Below, piece after piece: positions 6,707 through 63,651 of a stretch of 64,000 bases of DNA. The position numbers and the translations under genes were made by a program. The notes beneath the pieces are model-generated. The model saw nothing but the letters and a program-made list of their open reading frames with translations. It did not search any database and was not told the DNA's origin. The stretch covers positions 42,358 to 106,357 of IMG/VR virus record IMGVR_UViG_3300050343_000255; one strand, 5' to 3'. The stretch comes from a virus. How positions within the stretch are numbered: position 1 is the stretch's first letter; each line of letters opens with the position of its first letter.

Positions 6707-6708
6707 TA

Positions 6709-6793
6709 CGTTCATCCCCTAACATAAGGGGACGCAAGTACCTCAGGAATGGAGGGAAGGAACGGGAAACTACACCTCACTATGGAGTTTCCA
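6709..6793 (+). ncRNA. Downstream-peptide (glutamine-II) riboswitch with expression platform
   Basis: The aptamer at 6709-6764 has the conserved strands of the cyanobacterial glutamine riboswitches: CGTTCATCC, then GGGGACGCAAGTA, and the closing GAAGGAACG. CGTTC pairs with GAACG (P1), CCCC with GGGG around TAACATAA, and CCTC with GAGG. Downstream, GGAAACT (6765-6771) can pair with AGTTTCC (6786-6792), which covers part of the GGAG ribosome site at 6784-6787. That suggests glutamine-dependent control of translation. In this family the motif sits upstream of very short genes, exactly as here. Confidence 0.8.
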
Positions 6794-10229: not shown

Positions 10230-10373
10230 CTAAGCCTTTTTTCCAGGCTTAATTGCATTGACTGCAGAAAGCACAAGCTGTACAACAGAGTTGGACTTCA
10301 GTGGAGTCAGTGCAATAATTTCACTTGCAGCAGCAATAATAATCCAAAAAATTGGAGACTCAATGATACCCAT
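10230..10373 (-). CDS. Small hydrophobic protein (47 aa)
   Basis: Starts MGIIESPIFWIIIAAASEII and ends NAIKPGKKA. One hydrophobic helix, a central LTPLKSNSVVQL segment and a basic tail. The size and pattern match small phage membrane peptides, possibly holin-like. Too short for ordinary ORF cut-offs. Confidence 0.5.
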   Translation of the reverse strand: MGIIESPIFWIIIAAASEIIALTPLKSNSVVQLVLSAVNAIKPGKKA

Positions 10374-10400: not shown

Positions 10401-10527
10401 TAACTACTTTGCTACGCAAACTACGAGGTTTTCTATATACCTATCTTGTTAATCCTGGCTACGTAGCATCTATAGCCTATTTAAAAAAACAGTATATAAG
10501 CAGTAGCGTAGTCAGCGTAGTTTTTGC
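10401..10527. promoter_or_regulatory. Control region A: inverted clusters of GCGTAGTTT-type repeats
   Basis: Left arm 10401-10427 carries CTACTTTGCTACGCAAACTACG; the right arm 10503-10527 carries GTAGCGTAGTCAGCGTAG. Between them lie CTATATAC, CTATTTAAAAAAA and AGTATATAAG. A further GCGTAG occurs at 10559. The same arrangement is found at 52.3 and 61.5 kb. It lies between divergently transcribed genes (minus at 10373, plus at 10580), so it fits an operator-promoter region. Confidence 0.6.
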
Positions 10528-10579
10528 AGCTTTTATCTATTAGCTCTATGCTGAGTAAGCGTAGATGCATATATAGATT

Positions 10580-10858
10580 ATGGAATTCTCGACAGAGCAG
10601 CAATTGTTCCTGGCGATTCGCAGCCTCGACACCAAGCTCGACAGCGTGCTTCGTCGTCTCAACTCAGAAGAACAAGCAGAGTGGCTCGACACTAAAGACA
10701 CTTGCTCGATGCTTGGTTGCACCGACCGTCACCTCCGCAACTTGATGGCAGAGGGCACCATCGCTGGTGACTGCATCCGTAATGTCGGCACCATCAAACG
10801 TGCTCGTTACAAGTTTCACCGCAGCAAGGTTATGAGTCAGTACCTCAAGCGCGTTTGA
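10580..10858 (+). CDS. Helix-turn-helix protein, excisionase-like
   Basis: 92 aa. An N-terminal helix (TEQQLFLAIRSLDTKLDSVLR) precedes a winged-helix of the MerR/excisionase type: EWLDTKDTCSMLGCTDRHL, then LMAEGTIAGDC and a basic wing. Its end overlaps the integrase gene by 14 bases in convergent orientation, the usual place for a phage recombination directionality factor. It may equally be a regulator acting on the repeats just upstream. Confidence 0.65.
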   Translation: MEFSTEQQLFLAIRSLDTKLDSVLRRLNSEEQAEWLDTKDTCSMLGCTDRHLRNLMAEGTIAGDCIRNVGTIKRARYKFHRSKVMSQYLKRV

Positions 10859-11950
10859 ACTTGTCGCGCTGCTTTTCCCTCAGTGCACGCATGTTTTTCT
10901 TGTTGATCCACAGGTGGTAGTGCTTTCTATGTGTCGTTTCTGAGTGACCCATCAGCCTTGCAGCAGTGCTGATCTCTATCCCCTGCACTAGCGATCGAAT
11001 CGCATAGGCGTGACGCAGGTTGTACAGCGGCCTGTGCTTGAGATTGTTACGTTCCATGTAATCGGAGTACTGCCTGGCGACGTTCAAGCGGTGGCAGGTG
11101 GGCTTGTGTATCTCACACAGGTTCAGCTCCTTGATCCATTCTTCTGGCAACGCCCAAGCTTCACGCGAGTAAGGCTTGCCCTTGGTTTTGTAAGTCATCA
11201 GATTGATTACGTCATCCTCGAACTCGACGCTCAGTAATTCGCTGGGCCTGGTGCCAAAGGCCATGCTCATGCCATGCACCCATTTCCAGCGTGGATCTTC
11301 GATGCTGCTCCAGATCGACAGCAGTTCCTCATCACTAGGAATGTCCCGCTCAGTGAGCTGAGAAATTGTGTAGCCCTTCTCGCCTCGAACAGTGGCTGCT
11401 TATCCCACTTCAGTCCCATGTGATCAAGGGTGACTGAGACGATCGAGCCGAAGTTTTCCCGACTGCTCGGTGACTCGATGTCCTTAATCACCTGGCAGAT
11501 CGCCTCTAGATCAGCAGCTCCATAGAACTTGCTGAACAGGCTGATCGTCGGTTTGTACTTAGCGGTGTAGATGCCCGCGCCTGTCTTGGGCTTGTCTGGG
11601 TAATAGGCATCGAAGCGTGCCTCGATCGCCTGGCACAGCTCTGTGAACAGGATCGAATCACGTGGAGCACTGCTTTTCTTTGCAGTGATCTTGTCTTTGC
11701 TCCAGTTGCTCCAGCTGAAAGTGCCCATCGAAAGCTCCTCGTCCAAGCGGAACGCCAGCTCTTTGGCCTTATCAGGTGTACTTAAATCGCTGGCCCTTCA
11801 GCCTGTCGGAATTTGCTGCTGCTTACGCTTGCTCGGCTCCGTTTTGCAGGGCAGTGTGGCGACTAAGTACACAGCCTGTCGATCTGGCAGGGTTTTGATA
11901 GCGCAACGGTCCAGCTTCTTATTGAGGAACGTGACCCAATTTCTGTCCAT
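10845..11950 (-). CDS. int: Tyrosine integrase, frame-broken
   Basis: ~368 aa when joined. Start ATG 11950 (MDRNWVTFLNKKLD); breaks occur near 11800 (before TPDKAKELAFRLDEELS) and near 11400 (one missing G in GAGGCGAG restores GEKGYTISQLTERDIP). The catalytic domain has Arg in GTRPSELLSVEF, a beta-hairpin Lys in YKTKGK, the box YNLRHAYAIR where the usual first His is Tyr, GHSE, and the nucleophile in HYHLW. The N-terminal half is a SAM-like arm/core-binding domain. By eye the gene is more GC-rich than its neighbours. With the adjacent tRNA-half it should insert the phage into a host tRNA-Pro gene. Confidence 0.88.
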
Positions 11951-35830: not shown

Positions 35831-35844
35831 CTATTGTATTAAAG
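35831..35844 (-). promoter_or_regulatory. TACAATAG-type -10 element (minus)
   Basis: Minus strand reads TTTAATACAATAG, 22 bases upstream of the ATG at 35809 and just inside the end of the sigma-factor gene. Confidence 0.4.
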
Positions 35845-36778
35845 ATAGTCATTGACAGATTCTGATTCCTCACGCAAGTTCTTAAGTGCTTTGTGCTCTA
35901 ACGTTCTTACACGGTCACGGCTCATGTTCAACACTTGACCAATTGCTGTCATTGACATTGGTTCAAGAATATCCTCTCCAATTCCATATCTCATACTAAT
36001 TACAGCAGCTTGCATTTCAGGAAGCTCACCAATTAGTTCTCGAATATCATCTTTAATGAACTGTTGCTCTAGCAGCATTTCTGGTAGTTGTGTTTTATCT
36101 TCTAATAGATCAATCAATGCTGTATCCCGATTCTCTCCAATTTTAATTTCTAATGATGTAGGTTGACGAGCCTTACACATTAAATCTTTAATTTCATCTA
36201 CCTTTAGATTTAGGTATTCAGATAATTCAAATACATTTGGAAGCTGTCCATTGATCTGACTTAATTCACGTTGGGCTTTCTTAAGTTTGTTGAGGTTCTC
36301 AGTAACATGGATTGGTAACCGGATCGCCCTCGATTTCTCAGCGATTGCGCGAGTGATCCCTTGACGGATCCACCAGTAGGCGTAAGTAGAAAACTTGTAA
36401 CCACGGCCAGGATCAAACTTCTCGACGCCACGTACGAGACCGATCGTGCCTTCTTGGATAATGTCCAGAAGGTCCATGTTCCGCTTGGTGTATTTCTTAG
36501 CAACGGACACCACAAGCCGGAGGTTGGCAGTAACCATTTTGTCTTTGGCTTTTTCACCATCTCTGATTTGTTTGCGTAGATCCTTGTAAGGAACATCCAG
36601 CACTCGTGATACATCTTTGTGTCATCTAGCTGTAGTTCATCTTTAATGTTTTGATTTCCATCAAACGTTGAACTTGTCTGCCTAACAAGATTTCTTCGTC
36701 ATGCTCAAGTAAAGGAATTCGTCCGATATCACGGAGATATGCACGGACAGAATCTCCTGTACTCTTTGTAGATGCCAT
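35839..36778 (-). CDS. Group-2-like RNA polymerase sigma-70 factor
   Basis: ~312 aa when joined. ATG 36778 gives region 1.2: [37 protein letters not shown]. After breaks near 36645 and 36602 come region 2 ([52 protein letters not shown]), region 3 ([20 protein letters not shown]) and region 4 ([29 protein letters not shown]). The -10-recognition helix and -35 HTH are therefore complete. No long region 1.1, as in cyanobacterial group 2 factors. It would redirect host RNA polymerase to phage promoters; position amid virion genes suggests middle or late control. Confidence 0.9.
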
Positions 36779-52241: not shown

Positions 52242-53083
52242 TTTTAATACTGAATCAATTGTATCTAATGCAAAAACTACTCTTGCTACGCTGTTTCCCT
52301 ATATTGTTTATTTAAAAAGGTAAGAGTAATAGGTAGCTAGGAATTAACAAAGGATATATACAAAACAAGCGTAGTTTGCGTAGTTCGTAGCAAGGATTCA
52401 AACAAAGCAGCGTTGCCTCGATATTCCCACGATTGTCAACGTCCGCTCACACAGCCATATATAGTATGTACCCTAAGTTATGGGACATATACCCAAATTT
52501 AAAAGGGTAGGAGTCGGTCAATATTGACATATGGCACAAAAGAGTTCCCTATAGGACCCTAAATTAGTTAGAAAATTTTCGACACGTCTAATCCCTTCTG
52601 TACCCCGGTAACCGGTGGAACAAAAAAAATATACACACGTTTCACATGTGATTAACATTTGTTTTGAACACAAGTAACAACAGAAGGATTCAACTCAAGT
52701 TAACAACAGTAAAGTTTACACATAATGTTTCACATTTGTTTTACTTATGTTGTAACAGTTGAGTTCTTACACACGTCACGTTCGCTTTACAGAAGTATCA
52801 CTTTCGTTTATAGGAACATCTGTCGTTGACGTATGTGTATACATTGTTCCCCTGTGAAATTCATGGGCGTCATTTCGAGTCACACGATGACTACGATACA
52901 CGAGAGCTGGAATGTAACACAATGGCGTCAATGACGCCTCTAATTGTGTTCTTTATGTGTCACACATGCAATCACATGATCGGTCTTGTTCACTTAGCTG
53001 GCTATTTACCTTGTCCAGATTGGTACACAATGGCGTCAATTGACGCCTCTATTTCATTGTGTTCTTTCGATACTAAGTATCTC
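52242..53083. promoter_or_regulatory. Control region B, long non-coding stretch
   Basis: Divergent gap between the virion block and the + strand array. 52275-52295 holds ACTACTCTTGCTACGC; 52369-52391 holds GCGTAGTTTGCGTAGTTCG followed by TAGC; between lie TATTTAAAAAGG and GGATATATAC. From 52630 to 52775 two imperfect repeats (GTTTCACATGTG / GTTTCACATTTG) and an imperfect inverted pair (TCAACTCAAGTTAACAACA and GTTGTAACAGTTGAGTT) surround AT-rich DNA, which could be a replication origin. GGCGTC-AAT-GACGCC (52924) and GGCGTCAATTGACGCC (53032) are hairpins followed by T/C-rich tracts; a TTG-started reading frame through here (52826) is not convincing. Confidence 0.5.
53032..53047 (+). terminator. 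Hairpin GGCGTCAATTGACGCC
   Basis: Perfect palindrome upstream of the gene starting at 53084, followed by TCTATTTC and the box GTGTTCTTT. A near copy (GGCGTC-AAT-GACGCC) sits at 52924-52938. Confidence 0.5.
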
Positions 53084-61508: not shown

Positions 61509-61520
61509 AATCCCCTTAAA

Positions 61521-61656
61521 ACTACAAAGCTACACTTGCTACGCTACTTTTCCTATATGTGCATTTTTAAAAAGATAGTAATAAGAGAGGAGACTGCGTA
61601 ATAAAAAAAGATATATATAGGGAACTTGTGCGTTTTGCGTAGTTTACGTAGTTTGC
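61521..61656. promoter_or_regulatory. Control region C: inverted clusters of GCGTAGTTT-type repeats
   Basis: Left arm 61521-61551 holds ACTACAAAGCTACACTTGC, TACGCTACTTTT; right arm 61628-61656 holds GTGCGTTTTGCGTAGTTTAC, GTAGTTTGC. Between are CTATATG, TTTTTAAAAAG and GATATATATAG. Same plan as regions A and B. Directly upstream of the two ribbon-helix-helix-like genes. Confidence 0.6.
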
Positions 61657-61851
61657 CTAGTACCCCAAAAAAGGCATTTTTAATTGCGGCGCAAGCACAT
61701 TCACGCAAAAAAACGCTTTTTAAAAACCGCTACAAAACCTATCTGCGACTCTTGTCAGCGACAGTTACAATTCGTAACCGAGCCCAGAATTGGCAACAAT
61801 GCTCTATTTGGACCAATTTTTAGTTATTTTATTCCCATTCAAGTCGCTTTC

Positions 61852-62199
61852 ATGCAGCGCATCGACGTTCCTTGTGACGAAAAATTCGCTGCTGTTCTCA
61901 AAGAGTACTGCGCCTACTGGGGCATGACTATGGGAGAACTCATGTACGAAGCAGCGAAACAGCACATCCACTCATCTGCACAAGTGTGTGACCTTGCAGA
62001 TGGCCTTTTGCGTAAGCAAGGGATGATTCCTGACAAACGCTCAGCAAAGCACTGTTATGGCTATTTATGCCGGTGCTGCAAACATCAGCTTGCTTGCAGA
62101 ACTGGTCTTTATAAAAACGAATGGGAAATTGCTGAACAACACCAGCATTTGTTAAAAGAACAACCTGAAGCATGTTCATGTGACAGTTGTATTTCATGA
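61852..62199 (+). CDS. Ribbon-helix-helix-like protein with Cys cluster, copy 1
   Basis: 115 aa from ATG 61852 (the frame is open upstream to 61684 but that part covers the promoter region). N-terminal beta strand MQRIDVPCDEKFAAVLKEYC and helix WGMTMGELMYEAAKQHI follow the Arc/CopG-type DNA-binding pattern. C-terminal KHCYGYLCRCCKHQLACRTG has at least four Cys that could bind zinc or an Fe-S cluster, then ACSCDSCIS. Paralogous to the next gene; they overlap by ATGA. Probably a metal- or redox-sensitive regulator. Confidence 0.55.
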   Translation: MQRIDVPCDEKFAAVLKEYCAYWGMTMGELMYEAAKQHIHSSAQVCDLADGLLRKQGMIPDKRSAKHCYGYLCRCCKHQLACRTGLYKNEWEIAEQHQHLLKEQPEACSCDSCIS

Positions 62200-62513
62200 A
62201 AAAACTTCAAGTGCAAATGCCTGACCCATGTCATGCGGTATTAAAGGACTATGCCAATGCTTGGGGCATGACAATGTCTGAAGTGATGTATGAAGCCACT
62301 CGTTGCTTTATGCACAAACATTCAGAGAATTGTGGATACATCAATTCATTATTTACATTTAGACGTATCAAAGCTGACAAACGACTTACCAAAGAATGTT
62401 ATGGACATCCTTGTTTTGCCTGTGAGCACCTAGTTGCTTGTAAAACAGGACAATACAAAGGTGGCTGGGAAATGTCTGAGAAAGTTTCTGAGTACATTAA
62501 TCTGCAAGCATAA
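62196..62513 (+). CDS. Ribbon-helix-helix-like protein with Cys cluster, copy 2
   Basis: 105 aa. KKLQVQMPDPCHAVLKDYAN, AWGMTMSEVMYEATRCFM, then RIKADKRLTKECYGHPCFAC, EHLVACKTGQYKGGWEMSE. Shared with copy 1: LK.Y....GMTM.E.MYEA, the DKR..K.CYG..C..C.H..AC.TG.Y...WE pattern. A tandem duplication with divergence; heterodimer formation is possible. ATG overlaps the previous stop (ATGA). Confidence 0.55.
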   Translation: MKKLQVQMPDPCHAVLKDYANAWGMTMSEVMYEATRCFMHKHSENCGYINSLFTFRRIKADKRLTKECYGHPCFACEHLVACKTGQYKGGWEMSEKVSEYINLQA

Positions 62514-62676: not shown

Positions 62677-63651
62677 ATGGCTACAACCAAATGCCCTCAA
62701 ATTTCACATCTGGCTGGCTCGGCAATGGAGAACGTGCATGGCACGGGCAAGGGGTTGTCACCCCTGGCACACTCCCAGCGCGAGAAGCGTTTGAAACAGC
62801 AGACGCACTATTTTCTGTCGAGAAGCGCGAGCTCTTCTTCCCCAACAGCAACGCACTTCCAACCAATGATGAGTCCTTGTGGCTCCCATCAAACTCCTAC
62901 GGAGTTGTCCGAACTGACACCCAAGCCTTGCTCGGAGTTGTCACCAAGCAATACGAGATCGTCCAAAACGAATCGCTCCTACGCATGGCGGAGTTCATCC
63001 GTGAAGAGGCAGACATGGACTGCGTCATCGTTCTATCGGACGGAGCCAAAGTCTGTTTTACCGCCACACTCCGTGGTGCGGAGACGGACATCGTCCCTGG
63101 AGACACCGTCAAACGACGAATTGTTGGTTACTTGGGCCACGACGGTAAAACCGGCTGTGGAGCAAAGTTCACAAACATCCGTGTGGTTTGCCAAAACACT
63201 TTGACTGCAGCCTTATCTGGGACTGGTGCTTCTTCAAGCATCACTCACAAGGGAACTGCTAACGCTAACTTCGATGCTCTTATCAACAGTATCGATGTAG
63301 CACGTCAAGACTTCACTACTGAATGTGACCTGATGCGTGAGTTCTCACGATTCAGTATTACTTCTAGTCAATTTAATGACTTTGTAGATGAGGTCTACAA
63401 CATCGACGAAGGTCAAGCCTTCGTAAACGTGACAAAAGCTTGAGCAAGCATTCCGTGAATTGGATACGGTTCTGAATATGCCTCTTTCAGTCTTTGGAAT
63501 GGCTTTAATGCCATCACACAAGCTAGAAACAAGCACACGTAATCAAACTGCTGCTAAGTCTCGTGCACAGTTCGCACGTGGTACTTTCGGCCTTGGTGCT
63601 GTTATAAGCAAGAAAGCTTTCTCTATTGCACAAGAACTAGTTACAGCTTGA
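62677..63651 (+). CDS. DUF932 phage/plasmid-like protein, frame-broken at both ends
   Basis: ~325 aa. ATG 62677 lies 10 bases after GTGTCCAAT; one missing C near 62687 gives MATTQMPSNFTSGWLGNGER, AWHGQGVVTPGTLPAREAFE, the DUF932 start (WHG.G). The body (PSNSYGVVRTDTQALLGVVT; KVCFTATLRGAETDIVPGDT; KFTNIRVVCQNTLTAALSG) is the DUF932 core. It stops at 63441, but the next frame continues EQAFRELDTVLNMPLSVFGM to a TGA at 63651. Break at ACAAAAGCTTGA. DUF932 proteins occur on plasmids and phages; function unknown. Confidence 0.8.

What the first reader, a model, noticed from the sequence alone, without database searches (positions are those of the whole stretch)
61521..62513. Candidate three-site regulon: GCGTAGTTT repeat clusters and a tandem RHH/Cys-cluster gene pair
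Seen: three intergenic regions (10.40-10.53, 52.28-52.39, 61.52-61.66 kb) share one layout: a left arm with (A)CTAC..TTGCTACGC, an AT core with TATAT and TTTAAAAA, then TATATA, then a right arm of tandem GCGTAGTTT-like units, the arms inverted to each other. Copy C lies just upstream of two tandem, diverged genes whose N-terminus resembles a ribbon-helix-helix and whose C-terminus has a conserved CYG..C..C.H..AC cluster. Known: RHH repressors (Arc, MetJ, omega) bind tandem short repeats. Inference: these proteins are phage master regulators (lysogeny, copy control or partition) acting at all three sites, perhaps sensing metal or redox state. I know of no named family with this domain pair.
Basis: partly seen in the sequence, partly recalled or inferred. 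Interest (0 to 1): 0.8.

Follow-up and report, generated by a model that had tools for sequence, protein, structure and literature searches.

The report
Three paired control sites in cyanophages
A family of viruses of photosynthetic bacteria carries exactly three copies of the same two-sided DNA control element, at the starts of its main gene blocks, with a small DNA-binding (ribbon-helix-helix) protein gene always beside one of them, which points to a genome-wide switch that appears not to have been described.

Summary
The window is part of a 106-kb IMG/VR record that runs once round an ~81-kb cyanophage genome and 25 kb into a diverged second copy, so its five repeat sites are three per genome. 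Each site is two outward-pointing half-elements, WTTWAAAA-n4-TATATAGR-n5-14-(GYGTRGTT)x2, with cores mostly 41-56 bp apart. A model trained only on marine relatives finds exactly these six halves in the window (worst E=4e-5, next hit 4.7). Thirteen related records show the same: three sites in each near-complete genome, always paired, at homologous places. Site A lies beside a tyrosine integrase, B between late and early genes, C upstream of a ribbon-helix-helix (RHH) gene. RHH genes sit after C in every record holding C and nowhere else. The Cys cluster is a clade-specific addition. S-EIV1, the nearest isolate found, lacks the element and the RHH gene. Best reading: an RHH repressor reads the arms of three bidirectional promoter/operators, controls the gene modules and autoregulates. 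Binding and promoter activity are inferred. Redox sensing is possible but not general. ParA-type partition was searched for and not found. No integrated prophage was found.

The parts
10402..10531 (.). Site A: paired element (left half 10402-10444 on -, right half 10479-10531 on +), between the 47-aa membrane-protein gene and the Xis-like/integrase genes
   Evidence: syntenic in relatives
52267..52385 (.). Site B: paired element (left half 52267-52318 on -, right half 52344-52385 on +), between the leftward structural module and the rightward early module
61519..61654 (.). Site C: paired element (left half 61519-61573 on -, right half 61601-61654 on +), upstream of the RHH pair
61852..62199 (+). 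Gene 1: RHH domain (aa 1-42) plus Cys-cluster domain, 115 aa; start codon taken at 61852 rather than the mechanical ORF start 61684
62196..62513 (+). Gene 2: RHH plus Cys-cluster domain, 105 aa; overlaps the stop of gene 1 by 4 nt
62677..63651 (+). DUF932 gene downstream of the RHH pair, frameshifted in this record (one reading frame in relatives, 313-330 aa)
10230..10373 (-). 47-aa membrane-type protein gene, constant left neighbour of site A
10580..10858 (+). HTH_17 (putative excisionase) gene reading away from site A
   Evidence: Pfam PF12728, E=6.7e-5, just below the family cut-off
10845..11746 (-). Tyrosine integrase, broken into two frames here; intact 368-aa relative in G006; 3' end faces site A
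   Evidence: PF00589
35839..36603 (-). Phage-encoded sigma-70 family factor (regions 2-4 here; 1.2-4 in the 313-aa relative), in the late module; possible reader of the TATATAG cores

Best explanation
The three sites are copies of one bidirectional promoter/operator element that together start nearly all gene modules of this cyanophage lineage. Each half has an AT-rich core (WTTWAAAA-TATATAG) that probably acts as the promoter, followed by two tandem ~9-bp units that probably bind dimers of the RHH protein encoded just downstream of site C. When the protein is present it covers both arms of a site, represses (or switches) transcription in both directions and limits its own expression through site C. 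SHOWN here: the element, its pairing, its number, its synteny, its conservation, the constant RHH neighbour, an RHH-type fold prediction, and concerted change of the repeats at all sites. INFERRED: that RHH binds the repeats, that the cores are promoters, and that the switch serves lysogeny or infection timing. In the clade of the window the RHH gene is duplicated and carries a five-Cys domain that could add metal or redox sensing; that step is speculation.
For: Exactly three paired sites in each of the near-complete relatives G001, G005, G006, G007 and in the held-out G009 and G010 (one half of G010's third pair is weak, E=0.07); fragments have one or two. No solitary half in these genomes, and in a 2.9-million-contig scan 19 of 20 hits were this lineage and all 19 were paired. 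RHH genes lie immediately after site C in every record that holds C, including G010 (E=6.5e-13, not in the model), and nowhere else in these genomes. Repeats changed in concert: a GTGG unit is in 10 of 10 halves of G007/G008 but in 1 of 47 halves of the nine other genomes outside G012/G015. Modules read away from sites: early genes from B, replication genes from C, late genes leftward from B, a short block leftward from A. Fold-search hits are mostly RHH DNA-binders. The nearest isolate found, S-EIV1, has no element and no RHH match.
Against: No binding or transcription data. The cores have no conserved -35 hexamer (about zero information 14-35 bp upstream), so they are not standard sigma-70 promoters. 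The C-left half, and in several relatives the integrase-side half of A, point into the 3' end of an opposing gene and still keep strong cores, which simple divergent promoters do not explain. The phage sigma factor is a rival reader of the cores. No integrated prophage was found in 84,980 species genomes, so a lysogeny role is not shown. Fold-search E-values are individually weak (all above 1) and the models are of low to middling confidence (mean pLDDT 50 and 66).
Confidence: 0.62

Rival explanations
1. The elements are promoters for the phage-encoded sigma factor (late or middle promoters); the GCGTAG units are part of the promoter's initial transcribed region and the RHH gene is only an early gene that happens to follow site C.
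For: A sigma-70 family factor is encoded in all seven genomes tested, with regions 1.2-4 in the intact copy examined; the most conserved part of each half is TATATAG.
Against: Halves never occur singly, as promoters would be expected to; no -35 motif; the tandem units are separated from the core by a variable gap and change in concert, as operator sites do; sigma sits in the late module while sites head the early modules too.
Confidence: 0.15
2. The paired elements are replication origins or other nucleoprotein assembly sites (initiator-type boxes flanking an AT-rich core), in which the symmetry, not transcription, matters.
For: Symmetry is kept even where one half has no gene to drive; unconserved spacer but constrained core spacing, clusters at 41-43 and 49-56 bp; AT-rich boxes.
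Against: Three per genome, each at a module boundary and reading into genes; the RHH partner has a repressor-type fold rather than that of a known initiator; no independent evidence of origin activity.
Confidence: 0.12
3. Plasmid-type partition centromeres (parS-like) bound by an RHH ParB, for a plasmid-like prophage.
For: Closest analogue in layout: RHH Omega of pSM19035 binds short direct and inverted repeats overlapping the promoters of its regulon (PMC9499535); weak Omega_Repress and ParG hits for gene 1 of G008.
Against: No ParA-type ATPase found with PF13614 in any of 7 genomes, with all 14 control genomes positive; an integrase is present instead; only two or three units per arm here, while full ParA activation on pSM19035 needs four or more contiguous repeats (PMC9499535).
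Confidence: 0.04
4. The element is an integrase arm-site/att structure copied to three places.
For: Site A lies against the integrase 3' end in all relatives seen.
Against: B and C are far from the integrase and head gene modules; three att sites in one genome would promote self-recombination; the TATATAG cores and RHH linkage are unexplained.
Confidence: 0.02

Closest known systems
Omega (RHH) regulon and parS sites of plasmid pSM19035
   Same: An RHH protein reading tandem short units in direct and inverted orientation, overlapping promoters of several genes including its own; more than one site per replicon (PMC9499535)
   Different: ~9-bp GYGTRGTT-type units instead of 7-bp WATCACW; two or three units per arm with two mirrored arms round a core instead of 7-10 contiguous heptads; no ParA found; a phage with integrase and sigma factor; binding not shown here
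Arc/Mnt-type RHH repressors of phage P22 (from own knowledge)
   Same: Small phage RHH protein, operator overlapping divergent promoters, autoregulation
   Different: P22 uses this at one immunity region; here three genome-wide copies of a symmetric element; clade-specific C-terminal Cys domain
L5-type stoperators / lambda OL-OR operators (from own knowledge)
   Same: Several genome sites read by one repressor to shut down gene modules
   Different: Different fold (HTH repressors), different site architecture; stoperators are many and lie largely within transcribed regions
Synechococcus phage S-EIV1 (KJ410740)
   Same: Same virus group by terminase (56% aa identity) and major head protein (67%); similar genome size
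   Different: Element and RHH genes not found; no integrase in its annotation
WhiB-like [4Fe-4S] regulators (from own knowledge)
   Same: Similar Cys spacing: C-x26-C-x2-C-x5-C against C-xn-C-x2-C-x5-C
   Different: A fifth invariant Cys (C68); no Pfam match to WhiB at E<=10 in any of 12 members; fused to an RHH domain

Membership tests
RHH (Arc/CopG/MetJ) DNA-binding superfamily | Strand-helix-helix core of ~45 aa with helices about 10-22 and 27-42 | tested here: met
   Predicted helices 10-22/23 and 27-42 in both genes; fold hits mostly RHH entries, about 1.1-1.6 A rmsd over 34-42 residues for CopG, Arc, VapB, StnY. The strand is not formed in the monomer models and single E-values are weak
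RHH (Arc/CopG/MetJ) DNA-binding superfamily | Sequence-profile relation to a known RHH family | tested here: inconclusive
   Own genes: no Pfam hit at E<=1. Gene 1 of G007/G008: Antitox_RHH 0.0036, Omega_Repress 0.011, ParG 0.02, RHH_3 0.16 at best, all below cut-off; it aligns to the window family over aa 3-43 (hhalign E=2.7e-5, probability 75%)
RHH (Arc/CopG/MetJ) DNA-binding superfamily | Dimeric DNA binding through the ribbon | not testable with these tools
   Needs protein and DNA
pSM19035-type parABS partition | ParA Walker ATPase partner | tested here: not met
   PF13614 absent in 7 of 7 genomes, present in 14 of 14 controls; other ParA models were not tried
pSM19035-type parABS partition | Long contiguous repeat arrays (7-10 units) | tested here: not met
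   Usually two to three units per arm
Temperate-phage repressor/operator (immunity) system | Integrase and excisionase in the phage | tested here: met
   Tyrosine integrase beside site A (own, G005, G006, G007 by Pfam; others by similarity); HTH_17 putative Xis in own, G001, G006, below the Pfam cut-off
Temperate-phage repressor/operator (immunity) system | Stable prophage in a host genome | tested here: not met
   No RHH-pair match in the species genomes; the only terminase match is a 26.7-kb contig in a Rhodobiaceae MAG. Two pattern-seeded scans only, so absence is weak evidence
Temperate-phage repressor/operator (immunity) system | Repressor represses the promoters and itself | not testable with these tools
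   Needs expression data
WhiB-like regulators | WhiB profile match | tested here: not met
   No Pfam WhiB hit at E<=10 in 12 members; motif resemblance only
Sigma-70 promoter | -35 hexamer 16-18 bp upstream of -10 | tested here: not met
   About zero information 14-35 bp upstream of TATATAG over 64 halves

The most novel reading that the evidence does not exclude
A hitherto unknown, obligately paired cis-element, present exactly three times per genome in a widespread cyanophage group and read by an RHH protein with or without the phage's own sigma factor, works as one coupled nucleoprotein switch in which the two halves must act together, controls all modules including the one with psbA, and in one clade has gained a Cys-cluster sensor linking host redox or metal state to the infection programme.
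Probability: 0.25. Interest if true: 0.85.

Novelty: new variant of a known kind. Interest (0 to 1): 0.63.

Why it matters
This virus group carries psbA and has hundreds of relatives in environmental metagenomes (324 terminase relatives in IMG/VR), yet only one distant isolate in the collection searched and no control logic that I could find described. A three-copy, symmetric element tied to an RHH gene and an integrase gives a concrete, testable model for how integrase-bearing cyanophages switch gene modules on, which bears on the open question of whether picocyanobacterial phages lysogenise. The change from RHH to RHH-plus-Cys within one lineage is a natural experiment for how a phage repressor could gain a sensor.

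Tried and rejected
Chance matches: the tandem motif alone (GCGTAGTTTRCGTAGTT) hits 15 IMG/VR stretches; 14 lie outside the lineage and none of these has a paired half. Partition: no ParA found. S-EIV1 at the equivalent of site B: inspected; it has TAACGTAGTCAG direct repeats but no paired element. WhiB membership: motif only, no profile support. Solved-structure sequence search: nothing useful. Phage and species-genome collections: no RHH-pair relatives. Divergent-promoter-only reading: weakened, since the C-left half is kept with no divergent gene to drive. GC skew was not used because it follows gene direction. Literature: no paper found in the open library linking RHH proteins to cyanophage control sites; the S-EIV1 genome paper is not held, so a prior mention there cannot be excluded.

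Full report
WHAT THE WINDOW IS. The window is bases 42358-106357 of a 106,357-base IMG/VR virus record. The first 25.0 kb and last ~24.4 kb of that record align to each other at 86-98% identity in many blocks, so the record is one lap of an ~81.35-kb circular or terminally redundant genome plus part of a second lap through a diverged strain. The five exact or near repeat sites in the record are therefore three per genome: A (window 10.4 kb), B (52.3 kb) and C (61.5 kb). The nearest isolate found is Synechococcus phage S-EIV1 (terminase 56% aa). Relatives carry photosystem II D1 (psbA), ribonucleotide reductase, exonuclease and helicase-primase, and matches to S-EIV1's DNA polymerase A and ThyX. 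This is a cyanophage lineage.

THE ELEMENT. Alignment of sites from own and related genomes shows that each site is two outward-pointing halves. A half reads WTTWAAAA, 4 bases, TATATAG(R), 5-14 bases, then two (sometimes three) units GYGTRGTT spaced 8-11 bp. The ~20 bp between the two halves carry no information, but the core-to-core distance clusters at 41-43 and 49-56 bp (five entries of that script, at 6, 17 and 18 bp, are mis-picked cores and are set aside). There is no conserved -35 hexamer.

STATISTICS. A profile trained on own-clade halves finds, in nine virus records, only the paired sites: 48 halves with E<=0.018, then a gap to E=2.4. Applied to five marine records not used for training, it finds three pairs in each of the two near-complete genomes (G009, G010; one G010 half is weak, E=0.07) and two pairs in each of three fragments. 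Conversely, a profile trained only on the marine records finds exactly the six halves of the window, E=1.3e-10 to 4.1e-5, next E=4.7. In 100 dinucleotide-shuffled windows there was no outward pair. A scan of 2.9 million IMG/VR contigs for a single half gave 20 stretches: 19 belong to this lineage and all 19 contain the opposite half.

SYNTENY. Site A lies between a 47-aa membrane-type protein gene and the 3' end of a tyrosine integrase; in the window, G001 and G006 an HTH_17 putative excisionase gene is inserted between A and the integrase. Site B lies between the structural module and the early module. Site C lies upstream of the RHH gene(s), then DUF932 in most and psbA further on (G010 lacks DUF932 there). 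Modules read away from the sites: rightward from B (early) and C (replication), leftward from B (late) and from A (short block) in the window's orientation. The exceptions matter: C-left faces the 3' end of the early module, and in G005, G007 and G009-G011 the integrase-side half of A faces the 3' end of int, yet these halves keep cores about as good as the others. The pair, not the single half, therefore looks like the functional unit.

THE RHH GENES. Genes 61852-62199 and 62196-62513 encode 115 and 105 aa. AlphaFold models (mean pLDDT 50 and 66) have helices at 10-22/23 and 27-42, and Foldseek lists are dominated by RHH proteins (NikR, AtaR, Arc, CopG, VapB, AmrZ, MatP; StnY, MazE6, PrpA, CdbA, NikA), although no single E-value is significant. 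In the distant relatives G007/G008 gene 1 is a bare RHH with weak Antitox_RHH, Omega_Repress and ParG hits, aligned by hhalign to the window family over residues 3-43. Marine G009, G010, G012 and G015 have one bare RHH gene of about 46-85 aa after site C. A small RHH profile finds these genes after site C in every record holding C, including G010, which was not in the profile, and none elsewhere or in S-EIV1. The Cys domain (invariant C46, C68, C73, C76, C82) is thus an addition in one clade. The spacing C-x26-C-x2-C-x5-C recalls WhiB-type iron-sulphur proteins, but there is no profile support.

WHY RHH AND THE SITES BELONG TOGETHER. First, constant linkage of an RHH gene to site C while the RHH protein itself changes form. 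Second, concerted change: in G007/G008 a GTGG unit occurs in all 10 halves over all sites, against 1 of 47 halves in the nine other genomes outside G012/G015, where 4 of 8 have one. Such a change fits one factor reading all sites. Third, the nearest isolate lacks both. Fourth, other RHH proteins bind tandem short units overlapping promoters, for example Omega of pSM19035 (PMC9499535). None of this is a binding experiment.

MECHANISM. Most likely the arms are RHH operators just downstream of outward-facing promoter cores, so one protein switches all modules and its own gene. An integrase and a putative excisionase next to site A suggest a temperate switch, but no integrated prophage was found. 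A phage sigma-70 factor present in all seven genomes tested may read the cores, which lack a -35 box. Replication-origin function is not excluded. ParA-type partition is not supported.

LIMITS. All evidence is comparative. The RHH fold rests on low to middling confidence models plus weak profile hits. The profiles were partly trained on the sites they find; the held-out and reciprocal tests are the ones to rely on. Some records contain frameshifts. The S-EIV1 paper is not in the library, so an earlier mention of such repeats cannot be ruled out.

Noticed in passing
record G000 1-25000 and ~81900-106357 (window ~39.6-64.0 kb): The source record overlaps itself by ~25 kb at 86-98% identity, a join of two strains round a circular map; it also has frameshifts in DUF932, integrase and other genes. 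Copy numbers taken from the raw record are inflated.
   Followed up: yes
window 35839-36603 (-): Phage-encoded sigma-70 family factor, with regions 1.2-4 in the intact relative, in the structural module; present in all seven genomes tested.
   Followed up: partly
window 6707-6768 (+): Glutamine riboswitch aptamer (RF01739, 45.9 bits) directly before the ORF at 6749.
   Followed up: no
window 61655-61850 and equivalents in relatives: Leader between site C and the RHH gene has conserved short motifs, GTACCCCAA (or its inverse TTGGGGTAC) and CGAGCAAAAAAC; G007/G008 instead have a further inverted operator-like pair ACCACAC..AACGTGGT.
   Followed up: partly
L097 (NYTN01000033.1): A contig in a Rhodobiaceae MAG carries a terminase 89% identical to this cyanophage lineage, probably a virus contig mis-binned.
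   Followed up: no
G010:10864-11919, G012:6153-7217: A second reaction-centre gene, ~33% identical to the phage psbA and probably psbD, next to psbA in marine relatives.
   Followed up: no
G012, a few genes upstream of site C (- strand, near 12 kb): A tRNA-Leu-like sequence seen by eye in the output, not run through ARAGORN.
   Followed up: no
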